18,453 bases of DNA from Acanthamoeba castellanii str. Neff (lineage: Eukaryota; Discosea; Longamoebia; Acanthamoebidae), in assembly GCF_000313135.1 (NCBI RefSeq), contig NW_004457408.1:1-18453 (forward strand), given 5' to 3'. The notes below the pieces were generated by a model that saw only the letters and a program-made list of their open reading frames with translations, did no database searches and was not told the DNA's origin. Below, one piece after another: positions 1-10,833 of the stretch. Numbering within the stretch: position 1 is the stretch's first letter; each line of letters begins with the position of its first letter. A program made the position numbers and the translations under genes.

Positions 1-1152
1 TCGGTCGGGTTGTTGGACACGGCGCGGCCGGCGTTGATGAGACGTTCGATGGCCGACGCGACGTCCTTGGCGCTCGACAGGATCTTCACGCGGGCCACGC
101 GCTCGTCGGTGGTCGACGCCACGGCCTTGGCGGCGCCGAAGACCTGGCCCACGGCGCTGGTGGTGGCCTTGGCCGGCGCGCCCATGGCCTGGGGCGAGAC
201 CTTGGCCTTGTCGACCAGGTCATCAGAGGCATCGCGGAGCTGGTCCGCCGCGCGCTTGAGAATGGCGAGGGCGCCCTCGCGCGACTGGCCGGGCATGGCG
301 GCAAAGTTGCCCTCCTGGGCCGACAGCAGCGCGTAGTCGAGATCGGCGGCCGTCGCGGCAAAGGCCTCGAGGGCCTCGTCCACCTCCATGTGACCGCCGG
401 ACTCCTTGACAGCTGCGTGTGTGCAAAGCCAGGGTTAGTTCGGTCGACAAGAAAGAATGAAGGCCGTGTGTGGGTGGGCGCGTACCGCTGAGGGCCTCAA
501 GCATCTTCTTGAGCGCGTCGGTGACCTGGGTGGCGGCAGTGTTGAGCTGCAGCTTGGACTGGGGGTCCTTCAGCTTGGTCACGCACGAGCGCGAGACGGC
601 GACGAGGCCCGTGGCGGGCCTGGCCAGCGCCGCGGCGGCATGCATGAGGCGGTTGTCGTACTCCGGGTTGGTGGGCGAGGTCCACGAATCCTTAACCGCA
701 GCCACGAGGCCAGCCGTCGCTGTGTCACACCGCGAAGAGAAAATGTAAGCTTCGCGACACGCGACACGCGACACACGTACACACGACAGGACGGAAGTGA
801 CGTACGCGAAGCGGCCTGGTTGGCGCTGTCGACAAGGCTGGAGTAGGTCTCGTAGTCGAGCTGCGAGCCCACGCCCTTGCAGTCGGCGACCAGGGTCGAC
901 GTGGTGGCGGCGACGGCCTTGGACGCCGTGCGGAGCGCAGCCATGGCGGCCTCGCGCGTGGTGATGTCACCCAGGATGTGCTTGGTGGCGTCGGCCACGA
1001 GGGTGGCAGCATCACGCATCGTCTTGTGAGCCTGCTTGTCGCTCGGGTCGTTGGCAGCAGGCGAGGCGGTCGCCAACATGTTCTTCACTGCCGCAGTGAG
1101 GTCAGCCACGCCCTTGAAAAGGCGGTTCTTCTCCTCAGGATCGGACTCACTG

Positions 1153-1203
<51 letters not shown>

Positions 1204-4200
1204 GTGTGGTCAGCACTGTACCGCGGCGGGTTGGAATGGCGGGAATGTGGAGCGTACTTGGCAACGGACTTCGCAGCCTGGATGAGTTGGCCCTGAGCAG
1301 ACGCGACGCTGCGAGAGGCAGTGATGATAAGGTTGGGATTTCCCTCAGACGACATGAGACGCGCAACGGCATCCTGGATTTCAAACGCGGCGGCGGCCAT
1401 GGCCTCGCGGTTGGCCTGGGTTCGGCTGCCCACGCAGAGAGTCGAGTTGACGAGCTGCTGGAGGGCCTCGGTGGCGGCCTTGGCGGCGCGGGCGAGGTCA
1501 TTGCGCTGCTGCGGGTCCCTCACGCCGGCCTGGATGCCGGACACGAGACCGCCGCACGAGTCGGTGAGCGCACGCGCGGCATCCACCATGTACTTCTGGC
1601 ACGTCGGGTCCACAGCCACTGCACACAAAAAAAAATAAGAAATAAATGTGAGTATTCACCAAATGATGAATAATAAATAAATAATAAATAATAAATAGCA
1701 GTGGGGCTCTGGGTACCGGGAGCGATGGCCTCGGCGGTGGCGTTGACCTTGCCGCTGCCGAACTCGACCCTCCTGGCGCCCTCGGCCTGAGCGTTGCGGG
1801 TGCCGGGGTCAGCGCTGGCGGTGGCGTTCGCGGAGGTGTTCATGAGGTCCTTCGTCGCGGCGGCGACAGCGGCGGCCGAGGCCAGGAGCAGGTTCTTGGA
1901 GTCCTCGTCGGCATACTTGCCCTGCGCGGTCGCGTTGAGCGCCGCCGAGGTGGCCTGCAGCGACGCCGCAGCCTCCAGCAAGCGAGCTGTGGTAGGACAC
2001 CCAACGCATCATTGAGAAATGAACGAGAAAAGAAGAGAAAAGCAGCAAGAGAAAATGTGTACCCTTGGAGAGAGCGCTCGGATTGTCGGCGAGCTCGCCG
2101 GCGGCGTTCATGAGCTCCTTGAGGGCGTCGGACACGGCCTTGGCGCCATCGAGCAGCGAGATGTCGCCACCGTTGGCGGCGGCGGCGAGCTTGGCCGCGG
2201 AGATGAGGTTGGCCAGGTTGGTGGCCAGACCGCCGGCGTGCTTGTTGAGCTCCGACCGCGGCAGACCGTTGCCGGCGTCACGAATGAGCGCGCCAGCGGC
2301 GGCCGCGAGGGCGTTGTTGAGGTTGCACAGCTCCTGGCGCAGCTGCTCGGGGGTCTTGCCGCCGTGCTGGCCGATGGGAAGCGGGATGAGGAGATCGTTC
2401 ATCATGCTCATGATCGCGTTGTCGGCGTCGACCAGGTTGCCGATGCTGCCCAGCATGCCGGCCATGCCTGGCGACAGGCCCGGGAACTGGCCGCCGCCGC
2501 CCATGATCGCGCTCGAGCCCTGGTCGCCCCAGGTGCCACCATAGTCACTGTCACATTCCACACACCACGTCAGCACATTCCTCACAGCAATAAAATAGTA
2601 ATAAATTGTGATGCGAATCGTACCTGGTGGTCACGCTCTGGATGGCCAGGCCGTGGACGGTGCCGACGTGCTCCTCGGTCGCGCGCTCGCCCTCGTCGTC
2701 TTCGATCACGACGCCACCGTCCTTGCGCTTCTTGAGCAGGATGTCGATGTAGCCGGCGAGCTGCTGGGAGATGGCCTCGGCGTCGGGCGTGCCGATGATG
2801 ATGTACTCGTCGCGGTAGTCGCCGAAATCGAGCGTGAACGAGTTGGGGCCGGCGGCCCAGCGCTTGAGGTGGATGAGCGGGTGCTCCTCCTCGATCTGGC
2901 GGGTCTCGGGGTGCATGCAGATGATGTTCTCCTTGGTCACGCCCAGCATGAGCTCCTCGAGCCTCTTCTTGCCCTTGGGCTTCCACTTGCCGCGGTAGTA
3001 GGTGATACCGTAGGTCTTGAGCGAACGGCACAGCTGCACGTAGCGGTACTTGGCGTTGACCTCGGACATGTTCACCAGCTTCTTCCACTCCTGGACGAGC
3101 GGATCGTACAGGCCCTTGCTGCGGTGTGTCTTGGAGATGAGATCCTCCAGCTTCTTCTCCTTGTAGAAGGACTTGTTGTGCTTCGTGGGATCGAAGTTGC
3201 CATAGACGATCTGGCACTGCAGCGCACCGAACGCGATCGCCTCATCGCGGGTCACCGGGTGGTCGCCCTTCACCACAGCTGTGGCGAAGAAGAAGTGGAG
3301 GTGAGTGGTTTGTTTTTAGCTCCGATGAGCCGCCTGACGCGTTTTAGCTCCGATCAGCGAGAAAAGAACGAACGGCGTACATTCGTGGCACTGGACGTAG
3401 ACGAGATGGAGCTGGACGGGGTCGCTGCGATCGACGCGGTCGTCGTCGACGTAGAACTTCTTTTTGAGGGTGACCACTGAGTCATCGAGGAGACCCTGCT
3501 CGACCAGCGTCTGCGTGGGGTTGAGCCAGCCCTTGGCCTCGGCACCTGGCGCACCATCGTCATCGTCAGCGCCACCACCACCATCATCAACAACAAAGCG
3601 ATCGATGGTCAATGTGCGATGAGCGTACTGGGAAGCTTCTTCAGGACGGAGGGCCTGTCCTTCTTTTTCTTCTTCTTGAGCGTGTCGCCTTCCTTGGGCG
3701 GCTGGTCCTCCTCGTTGTACTGGAGGGCGAACTCCTCGGGGTTCCTGAGACCCATCTTCTTACCGATCATCTCCACGATCTCCGAAACCTGCCATACAAA
3801 TATTTAATATTTAATATTAATTCATGAATCGATTAATAAAAGAATTGATTAATTAATATATATTTAATTCTTTATTGATTAATATTAAAGATGAGAAGGA
3901 TGGAAACGTTACCGGCTCGGACTCATCGATCATCACAGTCTTGACGGTCTCATCGAGGAGCTTCACCTTCAGCGGTCTGTGCTTCTTTTTCACTTCGATC
4001 GTTTCCTAGGGAACGAACGGGGTAAGCACTCCGATTTGGCACAAATCAACTCAACTGCTGAGGTTTGGCGGGGAAGTACTCCGGCCTTGATGTCGTAGAA
4101 GAGAAGGGTCTTGTCGGGCCTCAGCCAACGGCCGAAGCGACCGATCTTTTCATCGGGGGGCTGGAACAGACCTACACATCGTCAACAAGAAGTTAGAAAG

Positions 4201-4960: not shown

Positions 4961-6801
4961 ATGGAAGCGAATAAGACCGCCCCAGTGAACGAACTCTGCC
5001 AAGTGGTGGTACAGGCGTCTACCACCCACGCCCTTCGTGGCGTGGTCAACAACGTGCAGGTCCTCTTCAACGTCATGACGGGTACCCTTTCTTCTTCTTT
5101 TTCTTCTTTGACGAGATCACCATACCCATCTCCATCTTCTTTTTGATTGACCATTTTTATGGGTAGGGCACACGGTGGAGGATACGGAGACGAAGCGTCC
5201 GCCCATCAACTTGGCCATCGTGCTGGACCGCAGCGGGTCGATGGACAGCGGCCAAAAGCTGAAGAACGCCAAGCTGGCCATCAAGAAGGTGATCGAGGCC
5301 CTGGGCGCAGACGATATCCTGCACCTGGTGCTCTACGGCTCCGAGGTGGAGCTGGCCTTCCAGAACGCCAGCGTCAAGGACCGCGAGTCTCTACTTGCTC
5401 GGGTGGACCAGGTCGTGACCGAGGGCATGACCAACATGCACGCCGGCCTCGACAAGGGTTCGCAGGTGGTGAGCGAGTACGCCAAGCAGGGCTACACCAA
5501 CCGCATCTTCCTCTTTTCGGACGGCCTCGTCAACGAAGGCGTCACCAACAAACAGGAGATCTACCGGTTCATCTCCCAGGTACGTACAAGAGCGCAACGT
5601 CGTCTGTCTCAGCGGTCGCTACTAGAAACCGTCTCTTACGTATCTTCTTCTTCTTCTACATGTTCTGCAACAAGATCTACACGGAGAGGGACACCAAGGT
5701 GAGCGCGTTCGGTCTCGGTAACGACTTTGACGAGGAGCTGATGAAGAGCATCGCCGAGCACGGCAGCGGTGCCTACTTCTTCATCGAGGGCAGCGCGGCC
5801 ATCCCTCGCTTCGTCGACTTTGCGCTCAAGGGCCTGTTCAAGCTGGTGGGCACCGACGCCGGTCTCAAGATCCGCGGGCTCAACGGCGCCGTGGTGACTA
5901 AGATCTACTCCCACCATGACCTCACCAAGCCCTACCAGTTCGGCGACCTCAAGCAGGACGACCACCGCAGCGCCGTGTGCGAGCTGCAGGTCACGCCCTC
6001 GGTGCAGCCCAGCGAGGAGGTGCTCACATGGGAGCTGGAGTATCGGCCCGCCTCCAACGCCGAGGAAACCCTGAGCTGTACGTCTGCTCTGCTTCACCCA
6101 CTTTGTCTGCGGTGTCGTGGCTCACGTTCCTTCTCGTACTCTCCACCTACACAGCTGAGAGAGCGGTCATTAAGGGCACACTCCGCATCCACTTCACCGA
6201 TAACGAGGAAGATGTGGCCAAGGGCGAGAACCCGCAGGTTCTGGCCAAGGTGGCCATCCAGCGCACGGGCGAGCTTGACGCCGAGCTCATCGGCCTCATC
6301 AGCAGCGGCAAGACCAAGGAAGCCATTGCCCTCACCGAGAAGGAGATCGTACGTAACACCCACCATGCGATCAACTGATGGGGGAGGCCTCTGACAAGGT
6401 TTGTTGTTTGCACGTGGTGCGCAGGAAATCCTGAGGTCTGCGCTGGACAAGGACCTCGATGGCAGCGCCAACATCGCAAACCACCTGAAGCATGTGGAGA
6501 CTGCCCTGGCCGACCTTCATCGCGAGGGAGCCAGCAAGGCTAACATGAAGAAGGTACGCAGCCCAGTGCCTCTGTACGGATCCAGATCGCGTACAGGTTC
6601 TAATGTTATTTGGTCGCGCCTGTGCAGGCTCACCACAGGAACTACATGAAGAGGAGAGCCTCGATCTGCTACGAGCAGCAATACATCAGCGATGAAATGA
6701 CGAAGGCAGCTGAAGACGAGGACAGCCCTCCTTCGAGCCCTCCTGCGAGCCCTCCCACCAGCCGTGCTGGATTGAACCGCCGCAATCTTCCATACTCGTA
6801 A
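4961..6801 (+). CDS. VWA (von Willebrand factor A) domain protein, 477 aa
   Basis: Exons: 4961-5081, 5167-5579, 5675-6077, 6155-6348, 6425-6553 and 6628-6801, total 1434 nt, all phases compatible. The VWA domain spans about residues 54-235. It has a complete metal-binding MIDAS: Asp61-x-Ser63-x-Ser65 in LDRSGSMDSG, Thr129 in EGMTNMHAGL and Asp159 in FLFSDGLVNEG. Such domains bind ligands through a divalent cation. Beyond it lies a beta-rich segment, then a helical segment (about 330-420), then a Ser/Pro-rich tail with tandem SSPPASPP-type repeats. There is no signal peptide or membrane segment, so a cytosolic location is inferred. This layout resembles the soluble VWA proteins common in amoebae and plants; partner and function are unknown. 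The ATG is the first in frame. The TAA lies in a TCGTAAGC context that mimics a splice donor, but the intron would be only 31 nt. Confidence 0.9.
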
Positions 6802-7037: not shown

Positions 7038-8886
7038 ATGGGCGCTGAAGAAAGTAGACCACGATACACGCTCGTGCCGCCCGTGTTCAAGCGCAGGCGA
7101 CCCCTGCGGTGCGTAGAAGTGAAATCCTGCTTGTTGCAACATGTCAAGATTGAAACCTCACATTATCTCCATCTTCTATATTTCGAATTGTAAAGATTTG
7201 TGGAGGCACACGAACGTGAGTACGACGAGGCTGGCAAGGAAGTGCGCAGGTACCCACCACTCTTCACCGTCGGTGCACCCTTTGGTGCGGCGAGAGCTGA
7301 GCCCGCTCTCTGGTGCTGGCGCGCAGGCTGCTTTCCGACTTGTACACAACGGACAGCTCGGTCAGTGGTGAGTTCTTTGCGTCGCCCGAGGAGAACGTGG
7401 TACGCCAGGGCTGCCCGCCGCCTGCACACGCCAAAGTAGTGGTGTGATCCGCTGACGGTTTAGACCGAAACACGACGCGACACGACCAACGACAGGACTG
7501 CTATGCGGAGATCCATCACCCGTACCAGAGCGTGGGCGGGAACACCATCGAGGGCAGCGCTCTGTTTACGTACGCGCTCACTGCGGGCCTTGCCTCGAGG
7601 CGAGTTTCTAGACTCACAGCCCTGGACGCTCTGCACGGGCGCACAGCGTTCGGTCGGAGCCGATGACGGTCGAGGGCCTGCTCTTCTCCAAGAACGGCGG
7701 CGGAGCGTCGATCACGCTGGGCTATAGGACCAAGGACGACAGCACCACCTCGTATGTTGCCGCCGAACACATGGTGAACAAGCCCGGCGGTACGCGCATT
7801 GCGCTCTCTGTCTCTCTTTCTCTCTGTCTCTCTCTTTGCGTTCGTCTGTCTGACAAACATTGGTCGACTCTGCTGCGCCAACGTGTGCCAACCAAGGCGG
7901 AAGCGGCACTGATCTGAAGGCCGGCATCTTCTACCGCTACAAGTACCTGTCATGCGGGGCCAGCGTCACCTCGCCGCTCGACCTGACGCTCAACGCCGCC
8001 AGGTAAGAGTCAGCGAAGTGAATCAAAGCAAAGCTGAGCTCTCCCTCTCTTGACTTGGCTGCAGCTTCTCACCTGTTCGACAGTCAACGAGGCGGGCTCC
8101 AGGCGCTGCGACAGCGCGTCGACGGCAACGTGTGGGCCATGTTCAAGCAGGGCACCGTCGCGCTGGGCACGGCTTGTCAGCTCGTCGACGGACGCCCTGG
8201 TGTGTTCTACACTTCGTGTGTGTGTGTGTGTGTGTGTGTGTGTCATCACCACTCACTTCCTGCTGTGCTGTGTCGGACCGCACACAGATGCGCTCAATGG
8301 TGTCATTTGCTACCGCAACCAGTGGACGCGACCCGACGAGCCGTGCACCGAGCTCACCATCCGCACCACGCAGAAGATCGCCGATGGACAGAGCGCGCCC
8401 ACTTTCCACGGCTCCTACTACCAGCGCATGGTCACCCGCCGCAAAGTGCAGGTACTACGGTCACCCGCGTCTCGCACGCTTCTTCACTCTTCGCCGACTC
8501 ACGCGCGCGTGTGTGTTCGCCTGGTCTCCTTCTAGAATCCGTTCGAGGAAGCGAATGTCCAGTTCATCACCAACTACGTCGACTTGGGCGTCGAGACCAC
8601 GGTCGCCGCTACGGGCACCAAGATGGCAGTTGGCGCGGTACTCCTTCGTCAAGGACCCGCCTTGTGTTTGACGCCCTTCCGCGCTCACCCGATTTCTCTC
8701 TCTCTCTCTCTCTCTCTGGTCGCGCTGGGTGCAGGCGTGGCAAGTCAACAAGAACACGCTGGTCAAGGGCAAGATCGGCAACTCTGCGTTCTCATTCTTG
8801 GTGGCCGCCAAATCGTACACGGCCCTTCGTCTTGTCTTGCTCTTCTTCTAGAAGACTCCCGCAAGTGCCTCACCAGGGGTTTTCTG

Positions 8887-8938
<52 letters not shown>

Positions 8939-9349: not shown

Positions 9350-10833
9350 ATGGCGAGCAAGGACAACATCATGTTCCCCCTCTCCTTGCCCATTGAGGTA
9401 CTCGACCACCACCACGACCTGCGACTTGGCTGGCGAAATGTGGTGGCTTGGCTGAAAACAACTCCTAACTCTCGGGGGGGACGTGAACAGCTGCAGCTGG
9501 GCATCTGGGCGCTACTCGACCGGAGGAGCCTCTGCAGCGCAAGTCTCGTGTGCCACGCCTGGCACGACCTCTCCTCCGACAATCACCTCTGGGTACCTTC
9601 TCGCCGCTACGCCTTTTTTTTTTTTTTTTTGTTCACTGAAGCCGTGGCTGTGCCGCGGCGGGGCTGAGCAGAAGGAGATGTGCCGCAGAGAGATCACGGA
9701 AGTGGAGTGGACGCCGCGCGCCCTGGCCCGCAACCACAAGTCGTGGAAGCGCCACTTTGGCGTGCGGCTGCGCGCCGCCGATCCCTACCTTGCTGCCTTG
9801 CGCCGTGTGGTGCCACAGCTGCTGGCCGACGCACGCACGCGCGGGTATAGCGCTGGTTTTGAATCGCTGTTCGCACGTTCTTCACTCTGACGCAGTAGTG
9901 CCTCGCTTCGTTCTGTGCGGGCCGTATTGAGGGGGGGCAGAGCGACCACGGAGACGGTGGACATCTCCATCAAGCTCTACTATGACCCCTATCGAGATCG
10001 GAGGTTCATTATAAGCAAGCCATTGCCTCACGCCATCAGGTAACCACGCCCCCTCCAGACCGCACTCTTCTGACAAGTGCTCATTGTTGTTGGCTCTGAC
10101 TTTTTCTGAACACACGCACCACCGCACACGCACGATACAAACAGGCATGCGACATCGGCCAAAGCTCGTAGTGATCTCCTTGGCATCATTGGACCCGATG
10201 GGCTCACCGTTCTTTGTGACCAAGCCGCCAAGCTGGGCGTGCACTACTTCGACGCCACGCACCTGCGATCCTTCAACAAGGACAGGAAAGCGATCAAGAA
10301 GTGGGGTGCGTGATGACCTCTGCAGCACACCTTGGTTGGTTGGTTTTCTCACCTTCTCTGCTGTTGATCAGGGCGACAGCACCACTGCTTTTACGCCCAT
10401 CACGAAATCATACGCATGGTCCCGCGACTCCTGGGGCCGCAGCTGAACAAGATGAGCAAGTTCCCTCGCCTGCTGCCCAGCGACGTTCCGCTTGCGGCGG
10501 TGGTCGAGGAATACCACCGTACGGCAAGAGTGGCCCTGCGCAAAGCTCCCACCCTGCAGGTGGCAGGTACCGGCACCTCCCCGCCCGTGGGCAGCGCATA
10601 TGCGTGTCGTGTGTGTCGTGTGCAAGCAGTGTACTCACGCCATCTTTGTGTGGGTGGTGGGGGCAGTGGGCCACGTGGGCATGAGCGCGGAGCAGCTCAT
10701 CCAAAACGTCAAGGCCTTCTCAGTTGCGCTGGTGGAGGTGCTGCCATCGTGGGATCGGGTCGCGAGCATCGCACTGCACGCCACCAGAGGACCGCCGTTC
10801 ACCGTCATCTCTGCGCCACCTCCTCGCCGTTGA
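9350..10833 (+). CDS. F-box protein fused to ribosomal protein uL1 (RPL10A)-like domain, 314 aa
   Basis: Exons: 9350-9397, 9491-9592, 9672-9844, 9941-10039, 10145-10305, 10372-10566 and 10667-10833, total 945 nt, exactly in phase. Residues ~13-55 are a classic F-box: LPIELQLGIWALLD, then SLVCHAWHDLSSDNHLWKEM, with the usual Trp after the box (HKSWKRHF). F-boxes bind Skp1 in SCF ubiquitin ligases. Residues ~86-305 follow eukaryotic uL1 almost end to end: TVDISIKLYYDPYRDRRF near its start, KDRKAIKKW in the second lobe, LLGPQLNKMSKFPRLL (215-230), LQVAVGHVGMSAEQLIQNV (around 258-265) and a final SIALHATRGPPF. Human RPL10A has LGPGLNKAGKFP and AVAVGHVKMTDDEL at the equivalent places. The domain is diverged, so it is probably not the housekeeping ribosomal protein. 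The two parts are joined within one exon (exon 3), so the fusion does not depend on a doubtful splice. Cytosol or nucleus expected. Confidence 0.85.
9614..9630 (+). repeat. T17 homopolymer in intron 2 of the F-box/uL1 gene
   Basis: Seventeen consecutive T's inside intron 9593-9671, about 40 nt before the acceptor. It may serve as an early polypyrimidine tract. Confidence 0.9.

What the first reader, a model, noticed from the sequence alone, without database searches (positions are those of the whole stretch)
9350..10833. F-box joined to a ribosomal protein uL1 (RPL10A)-like domain in one polypeptide
Seen: a seven-exon gene, exactly in phase, encodes an F-box (LPIELQLGIWALLD, NHLWKEM) followed by about 220 residues that track eukaryotic uL1 from start to end, including LGPQLNKMSKFP and VAVGHVGMS. 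Known: F-boxes recruit Skp1-cullin ubiquitin ligases; uL1 binds the rRNA L1 stalk and, in some organisms, its own mRNA. I know of no described F-box/uL1 fusion. Inference: uL1 would serve as the substrate- or RNA-recognition module, aiming an SCF ligase at the ribosomal L1 stalk, at free uL1 partners, or at RNA. Divergence from RPL10A and the exon-internal junction argue for a dedicated protein, not a chimeric gene model.
Basis: partly seen in the sequence, partly recalled or inferred. Interest (0 to 1): 0.88.

Follow-up and report, generated by a model that had tools for sequence, protein, structure and literature searches.

The report
F-box fused to ribosomal uL1-like domain
An amoeba gene joins the part of a protein that recruits a ubiquitin-tagging machine to a diverged copy of a ribosomal RNA-binding protein; it belongs to a small conserved gene family, and what it tags is not known.

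Summary
Window 9350-10833 (+) is a seven-exon gene for a 314-residue protein with an F-box (Pfam F-box-like E=1.7e-11, residues 12-56) and a nearly complete eukaryotic-type uL1 domain (Ribosomal_L1 E=6.5e-25, residues 109-302). The genome is Acanthamoeba castellanii Neff or very near it. The gene is one of four paralogs on four contigs with a common exon plan. Intronless, cDNA-like contigs for two paralogs run through both domains, so a chimeric model or misassembly is excluded for the family. The window copy has no transcript match, but its own substitutions show purifying selection in both parts. No relative known to come from another genus was found at the sensitivity used. Most likely it is a substrate receptor of an SCF ubiquitin ligase in which a duplicated uL1 became the recognition module. 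Whether that module still binds the rRNA L1 stalk is open: the T-M-G motif is T-R/K-G in 4 of 4 paralogs, and domain I is not better kept than domain II. No canonical RPL10A was found in the 38.4 Mb held.

The parts
9350..9397 (+). exon 1: start codon and first F-box residues (aa 1-16)
   Evidence: donor GTACTC
9491..9592 (+). exon 2: main part of the F-box (aa 17-50)
   Evidence: Pfam F-box-like aa 12-56
9672..9844 (+). exon 3: end of the F-box, conserved linker (VEWTPRxLARxHKSWKxHF in the four paralogs), weak start of uL1 similarity (aa 51-107)
9941..10039 (+). exon 4: uL1 part (from the split codon 108 to aa 140)
10145..10305 (+). exon 5: uL1 part (aa 141-194)
10372..10566 (+). exon 6: uL1 part with LGPQLNKMSKFP (aa 195-259)
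10667..10833 (+). exon 7: uL1 part with VGHVGMS and the altered T-M-G motif (ATRGPP), stop TGA

Best explanation
The gene encodes an F-box substrate receptor of an SCF (Skp1-cullin-F-box) ubiquitin ligase whose recognition module is a duplicated and diverged eukaryotic ribosomal protein uL1 (RPL10A). Shown: both domains lie in one reading frame, the fusion is shared by four paralogs, both parts of the window copy are under purifying selection, and the genome has Skp1-family matches. Inferred: the F-box binds Skp1; the linker packs as a post-F-box extension; the uL1 part binds a partner (an RNA, a ribosome surface, or a protein that normally handles uL1) and presents it or its complex for ubiquitination. 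The F-box and linker are the more constant part and the uL1 part the more variable one, as expected of a receptor family.
For: F-box above both curated cut-offs and similar to solved F-boxes. Full-length uL1 match. Intron places: 6 of 6 in the same alignment column and phase in C147 and C141, 5 of 5 modelled ones in C61, and 5 of 6 in C154, whose third intron lies one codon further on. P0001, on a 1117-base contig, equals the C61 exons over 308 of 308 residues; P0003, on a 1040-base contig, matches C154 at 98% over 316 columns; each runs over five intron places. Whole-alignment Ka/Ks 0.27-0.45 in 6 of 6 pairs. Window branch: 10 nonsynonymous and 36 synonymous single-base changes at 170 codons, neutral nonsynonymous fraction 0.73, p=4.1e-13; F-box plus linker 2 and 8 (p=2.2e-4), uL1 part 8 and 28 (p=1.1e-9). 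F-box identity exceeds uL1 identity in 6 of 6 pairs (0.68-0.84 against 0.40-0.62). Skp1 family: 3 places over the cut-off. F-box-like: the 150 matches listed (150 of 452 candidates scored) pass the cut-off.
Against: No interaction, ligase or localisation data. No transcript match for the window copy. Structure prediction failed (mean pLDDT 33.6 and 33.2), so fold retention rests on sequence. C61 has no in-frame ATG before its exon-1-like end, so one paralog may lack part of the F-box. The C141 branch is less constrained than the others (23 nonsynonymous, 23 synonymous). The low F-box divergence between C147 and C141 is partly due to apparent gene conversion.
Confidence: 0.72

Rival explanations
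1. A narrower form of the best reading: the uL1 part still binds the rRNA L1 stalk (or a look-alike RNA) and brings the ligase to 60S subunits or pre-60S particles, as a receptor for ribosome quality control or turnover.
For: Full-length uL1 match. The uL1 part stays basic (net +7 to +12, pI 9.3-10.3). T and G of the T-M-G motif and the (E/D)TV strand are kept in 4 of 4.
Against: M of T-M-G is R or K in 4 of 4; the F before ETV is missing in 3 of 4; domain I is not better kept than domain II; canonical lysines K146 and K206 (Arabidopsis numbering) are V and H in 4 of 4. That these residues touch rRNA is recalled, not tested.
Confidence: 0.25
2. The uL1 part binds proteins that handle free uL1 (a dedicated chaperone such as yeast Acl1, an importin) or acts as a decoy, and the ligase controls uL1 supply.
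For: The stretch LxxFxxxxKxIKKW is kept in the four paralogs; surfaces of uL1 that do not touch RNA could be kept.
Against: No direct evidence; Acl1 and its role are recalled.
Confidence: 0.15
3. The F-box is vestigial or used for another purpose, and the protein is mainly an RNA-binding uL1 paralog.
For: C61 lacks an in-frame ATG before its exon-1-like end.
Against: The F-box is more conserved than the uL1 part in 6 of 6 pairs, and F-box plus linker are constrained on the window branch.
Confidence: 0.08
4. Chimeric gene model, pseudogene or misassembly.
For: No transcript match for the window copy; the contig is only 18,453 bp.
Against: Four contigs with a common exon plan, two cDNA-like contigs for paralogs, purifying selection on the window branch.
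Confidence: 0.02

Closest known systems
F-box substrate receptors of SCF ligases (F-box/WD proteins 1A and 7; Skp2)
   Same: N-terminal F-box above the Pfam cut-offs followed by a C-terminal domain; sequence hits to solved F-boxes (1fs1_A is labelled cyclin A/CDK2-associated p19 there, and I recall it as the Skp2 F-box)
   Different: C-terminal domain is uL1-like, not WD40, LRR or Kelch (that these are the usual ones is recalled)
Eukaryotic ribosomal protein uL1 (RPL10A / yeast Rpl1)
   Same: L1 match over almost the whole profile, best E=3.2e-32, family profile E=5.3e-38
   Different: 33-34% identity to recalled yeast and Arabidopsis proteins, N-terminal F-box, T-M-G changed to T-R/K-G, fewer lysines (K/(K+R) of the whole protein 0.19-0.34 against 0.82 in recalled Arabidopsis RPL10A)
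RSL1D1 / Utp30 / Cic1, L1-domain proteins of ribosome assembly
   Same: Non-ribosomal proteins with an L1 domain; one such gene lies at C161:881453-882246, its middle exon matching the fission yeast, human and thermophile members best (E=3.2e-10 to 3.4e-7)
   Different: The fusion family is far nearer to canonical uL1 (5.3e-38) than to RSL1D1 (2.4e-7) or Utp30 (1.2e-4)
A. castellanii Neff 'L1P family protein' entries (P0002, P0004)
   Same: Paralogs of this gene (C141 and C154), already in public databases with F-box and L1 Pfam hits
   Different: Named for L1 only; 8 and 34 residues shorter than the gene models made here

Membership tests
F-box protein | F-box domain above curated cut-off | tested here: met
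   PF12937 44.1 bits (24.3), PF00646 28.2 bits (20.5)
F-box protein (SCF receptor) | binds Skp1 and joins a cullin complex | not testable with these tools
   Skp1 family present in the genome; cullin not searched; no binding data
F-box protein (SCF receptor) | second domain that recognises a substrate | tested here: inconclusive
   a second domain is present; its ligand is unknown
Ribosomal protein uL1 (RPL10A) | complete L1 domain sequence | tested here: met
   PF00687 profile 8-198 of 198, 88.3 bits
Ribosomal protein uL1 (RPL10A) | T-M-G motif near the C-terminus (its importance for RNA binding is recalled) | tested here: not met
   T-R-G in three and T-K-G in one of four paralogs
Ribosomal protein uL1 (RPL10A) | stand-alone protein of about 217 aa | tested here: not met
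   314 aa with an F-box
Ribosomal protein uL1 (RPL10A) | part of the 60S subunit | not testable with these tools
   no proteomic or structural data at hand
RSL1D1/Utp30/Cic1 | closer to that group than to canonical uL1 | tested here: not met
   2.4e-7 (RSL1D1) and 1.2e-4 (Utp30) against 5.3e-38 (uL1)

The most novel reading that the evidence does not exclude
An SCF ligase family of Acanthamoeba that uses a duplicated ribosomal protein as its aiming part, so that ubiquitination is directed by uL1-type binding to a ribosome or RNA target; the four paralogs would differ in which RNA or particle they read.
Probability: 0.25. Interest if true: 0.85.

Novelty: new variant of a known kind. Interest (0 to 1): 0.6.

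Why it matters
A ribosomal protein turned into the recognition half of a ubiquitin-ligase receptor would be an unusual way to link protein degradation to ribosomes or RNA, and the family gives four natural variants to test it. If the domain still reads the L1 stalk, it would be a direct route by which a cell could mark whole ribosomes; if not, it shows how a ribosomal protein can be freed for a new binding task.

Tried and rejected

Canonical RPL10A: in the held genome the profile PF00687 gave six matches, in the four fusions and in the RSL1D1/Utp30-like gene of C161 (its kind checked, while its first exon alone was too weak to place). The yeast protein gave one match, the window gene. The Arabidopsis protein gave five matches at E<=1, all in the four fusions, only one of them (the window gene) at E<=0.001. 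Controls uL3, uL14 and uL5 each gave matches over the cut-off, 3 of 3. I do not conclude absence: the genome paper (PMC4053784; passages seen) reports 45.1 Mb of scaffolds with 7.5% gaps, and 38.4 Mb is held here.

Relatives elsewhere: three protein-database searches gave five proteins in all: two named A. castellanii Neff, two from a source labelled lgn that match the C61 and C154 paralogs, and P0005, a 284-aa frame on a 1595-base contig whose organism is not shown. P0005 resembles the window protein (59% over 38% of it), reads like unspliced genomic DNA, shows no F-box and stays under the L1 cut-off (16.1 against 32.2 bits). In some searches only the 7993 and 7999 candidates sharing most words were scored; (uL1 part alone, 1641 candidates) even missed P0002-P0004, so distant fusions can have been missed. 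Viral contigs and prokaryote genomes: no confirmed relative.

Literature: ten searches, listings only; several were capped (10 of 112, 15 of 86 and 10 of 2,385 papers listed). No title or abstract start shown described an F-box/uL1 fusion. In the main text of PMC4053784 F-box, ubiquitin and ribosomal protein have 0 occurrences. Preprints and most subscription journals are not held.

Rejected: chimeric model, pseudogene, misassembly; membership in RSL1D1/Utp30. Lysine poverty as a guard against self-ubiquitination was considered and is not claimed: the fusions have K/(K+R) 0.19-0.34, but a VWA exon of the same window has 0.40, and only a few host proteins were compared (uL3 exon 0.53, talin exon 0.65, C161 exons in the right frame 0.64-0.85).

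Full report
Setting. The window is the whole of contig C147 of genome G000 (38,447,144 bases, 250 contigs). Contigs C141 (43,010 bp) and C154 (382,699 bp) of G000 have exactly the lengths of the contigs that carry two A. castellanii str. Neff proteins, P0002 and P0004, so the genome is that strain or a copy of its assembly. The published genome has 6.2 introns per gene on average (PMC4053784, passage); this gene has six.

The gene. Seven exons between 9350 and 10833 with GT-AG introns of 66-105 bases join in phase to 314 codons and a TGA. Pfam recognises F-box-like at residues 12-56 (E=1.7e-11), F-box at 11-51 (E=1.6e-6) and Ribosomal_L1 at 109-302 (E=6.5e-25). By sequence the nearest solved structures are eukaryotic uL1 chains, and over the N-terminus F-boxes of F-box/WD proteins 1A, 11 and 7 and 1fs1_A. 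Chance is excluded by these E-values. Exon 3 (residues 51-107) holds the end of the F-box, a conserved linker and the weak start of the uL1 similarity (from residue 92); the Pfam L1 match starts in exon 4.

A family, not an accident. The window protein finds three more loci of the same kind in the same genome: C141, C154 and C61. Gene models made here are C141 29162-27593 (-), C154 61998-60379 (-) and C61 153196-154692 (+, first exon unresolved). The exon ends were set by eye on GT-AG sites with the window gene and P0001-P0004 as guides. Placed on the protein alignment, all six introns of C147 and C141 share column and phase (0, 0, 2, 2, 1, 1); so do the five modelled introns of C61; in C154 five of six do, and the third lies one codon further on, as P0003 reads it. 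P0001 (310 aa, 1117-base contig, 9 member sequences) equals the C61 exons at 308 of 308 residues. P0003 (316 aa, 1040-base contig) matches C154 at 98% over 316 columns, with two mismatches and three extra residues in its tail. The genomic genes span about 1.5-1.6 kb, so these contigs lack the introns: they come from spliced RNA or a copy of it, and they run from inside the F-box through the uL1 domain. I read the source label lgn as Logan (assemblies of public reads); that is recalled. No such contig was found for the window copy.

Selection. Whole-alignment Ka/Ks lies between 0.27 and 0.45 in six of six pairs (Nei-Gojobori, synonymous differences high, Ks 0.74-1.48). At 170 codons where two of the other three paralogs agree, the window copy has 10 nonsynonymous and 36 synonymous single-base changes, where neutrality predicts 73% nonsynonymous (p=4.1e-13). 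The other branches: C141 23 and 23, C61 17 and 41, C154 26 and 46 (p=3.3e-4 or lower each). For the window copy the test also holds for F-box plus linker (2 and 8, p=2.2e-4) and for the uL1 part (8 and 28, p=1.1e-9). Choosing codons shared by two relatives favours constrained sites, but a decaying copy would still change them at random. The window gene is thus very unlikely to be a pseudogene.

How the two halves behave. F-box identity is 0.68-0.84 and uL1 identity 0.40-0.62; the F-box is higher in six of six pairs. Part of this between C147 and C141 is apparent exchange: the synonymous difference per site is 0.25-0.27 in exons 2 and 3, 0.40-0.43 in exons 1 and 4, and 0.52-0.71 in exons 5-7 (residues 17-85 against the rest: 0 of 5000 shuffles as extreme). 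The pair C147-C61 shows no such contrast (703 of 5000) and C147-C154 a weaker one (156 of 5000).

The uL1 part. It is nearer to eukaryotic cytosolic uL1 than to the RSL1D1/Utp30 group (5.3e-38 against 2.4e-7 and 1.2e-4). Of residues identical in recalled Arabidopsis and yeast RPL10A, the window protein keeps 26 of 70 in domain I and 26 of 56 in domain II; the four paralogs together keep 15 of 70 and 11 of 56 (the domain bounds were set by me). The T-M-G motif, recalled as a core rRNA contact, is T-R-G in three and T-K-G in one. Several canonical positions changed to one new residue in all four (for example L102W, Q198D, K206H; Arabidopsis numbering), which marks a coherent new family. The part stays basic (net +7 to +12). 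So RNA binding is plausible, but the canonical L1-stalk contact is doubtful.

Canonical uL1. Neither the Pfam profile nor yeast or Arabidopsis queries found a canonical RPL10A in the held genome, while three other large-subunit families were found. The one further L1-domain gene, C161:881453-882246, matches the Utp30/RSL1D1/Cic1 group best. I take the missing RPL10A as a gap in what is held, not as a sign that the fusions replace it: they diverge too fast from each other for a ribosomal protein (inference).

Mechanism. The best reading is an SCF substrate receptor: the F-box is above both cut-offs, three Skp1-family places exist, and this genome holds at least 150 F-box-like matches over the cut-off (150 of 452 candidates scored), so F-box proteins are common here. 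The new element is the second domain. What it binds is not shown. I rank an unspecified protein or RNA partner first, the ribosome or pre-60S second, and uL1-handling proteins third.

Novelty. The paralogs C141 and C154 are already in public databases as L1P family proteins with both Pfam domains precomputed, but ten paper searches (listings) showed no description of such a fusion. It is a new domain pairing within the known kind of F-box proteins.

Noticed in passing
C147 exons 2-3 (9491-9844) against C141 29042-28628: The F-box exons are far more alike at synonymous sites than the uL1 exons, which suggests gene conversion of the F-box module between two paralogs.
   Followed up: partly
G000 C61, within 100 bases upstream of 153196: C61 keeps an exon-1-like end (LALPHE then GT) but no in-frame ATG before it, so its start is unresolved or lost, although a cDNA-like contig exists.
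   Followed up: partly
P0002 and P0004: The deposited models of two paralogs are 8 and 34 residues shorter than exon models made here; the cDNA-like contig P0003 supports the longer form of C154.
   Followed up: yes
four paralogs, whole proteins: Lysine is scarce: K/(K+R) 0.19-0.34, against 0.82 in recalled Arabidopsis RPL10A, 0.53 in a uL3 exon and 0.40 in a VWA exon of the same genome.
   Followed up: partly
window 579-3315, minus strand: Talin-like stretch: FERM_M and PTB (IRS) domains (2551-3312) and a talin IBS2B match (579-1652).
   Followed up: no
window 5151-5699, plus strand: Von Willebrand factor type A domain exon (VWA_2 E=1.6e-14).
   Followed up: no
G000 C161:881453-882246 (L001): A separate L1-domain gene of the Utp30/RSL1D1/Cic1 kind.
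   Followed up: partly
window about 8884-8936: Long GT repeat upstream of the F-box gene.
   Followed up: no
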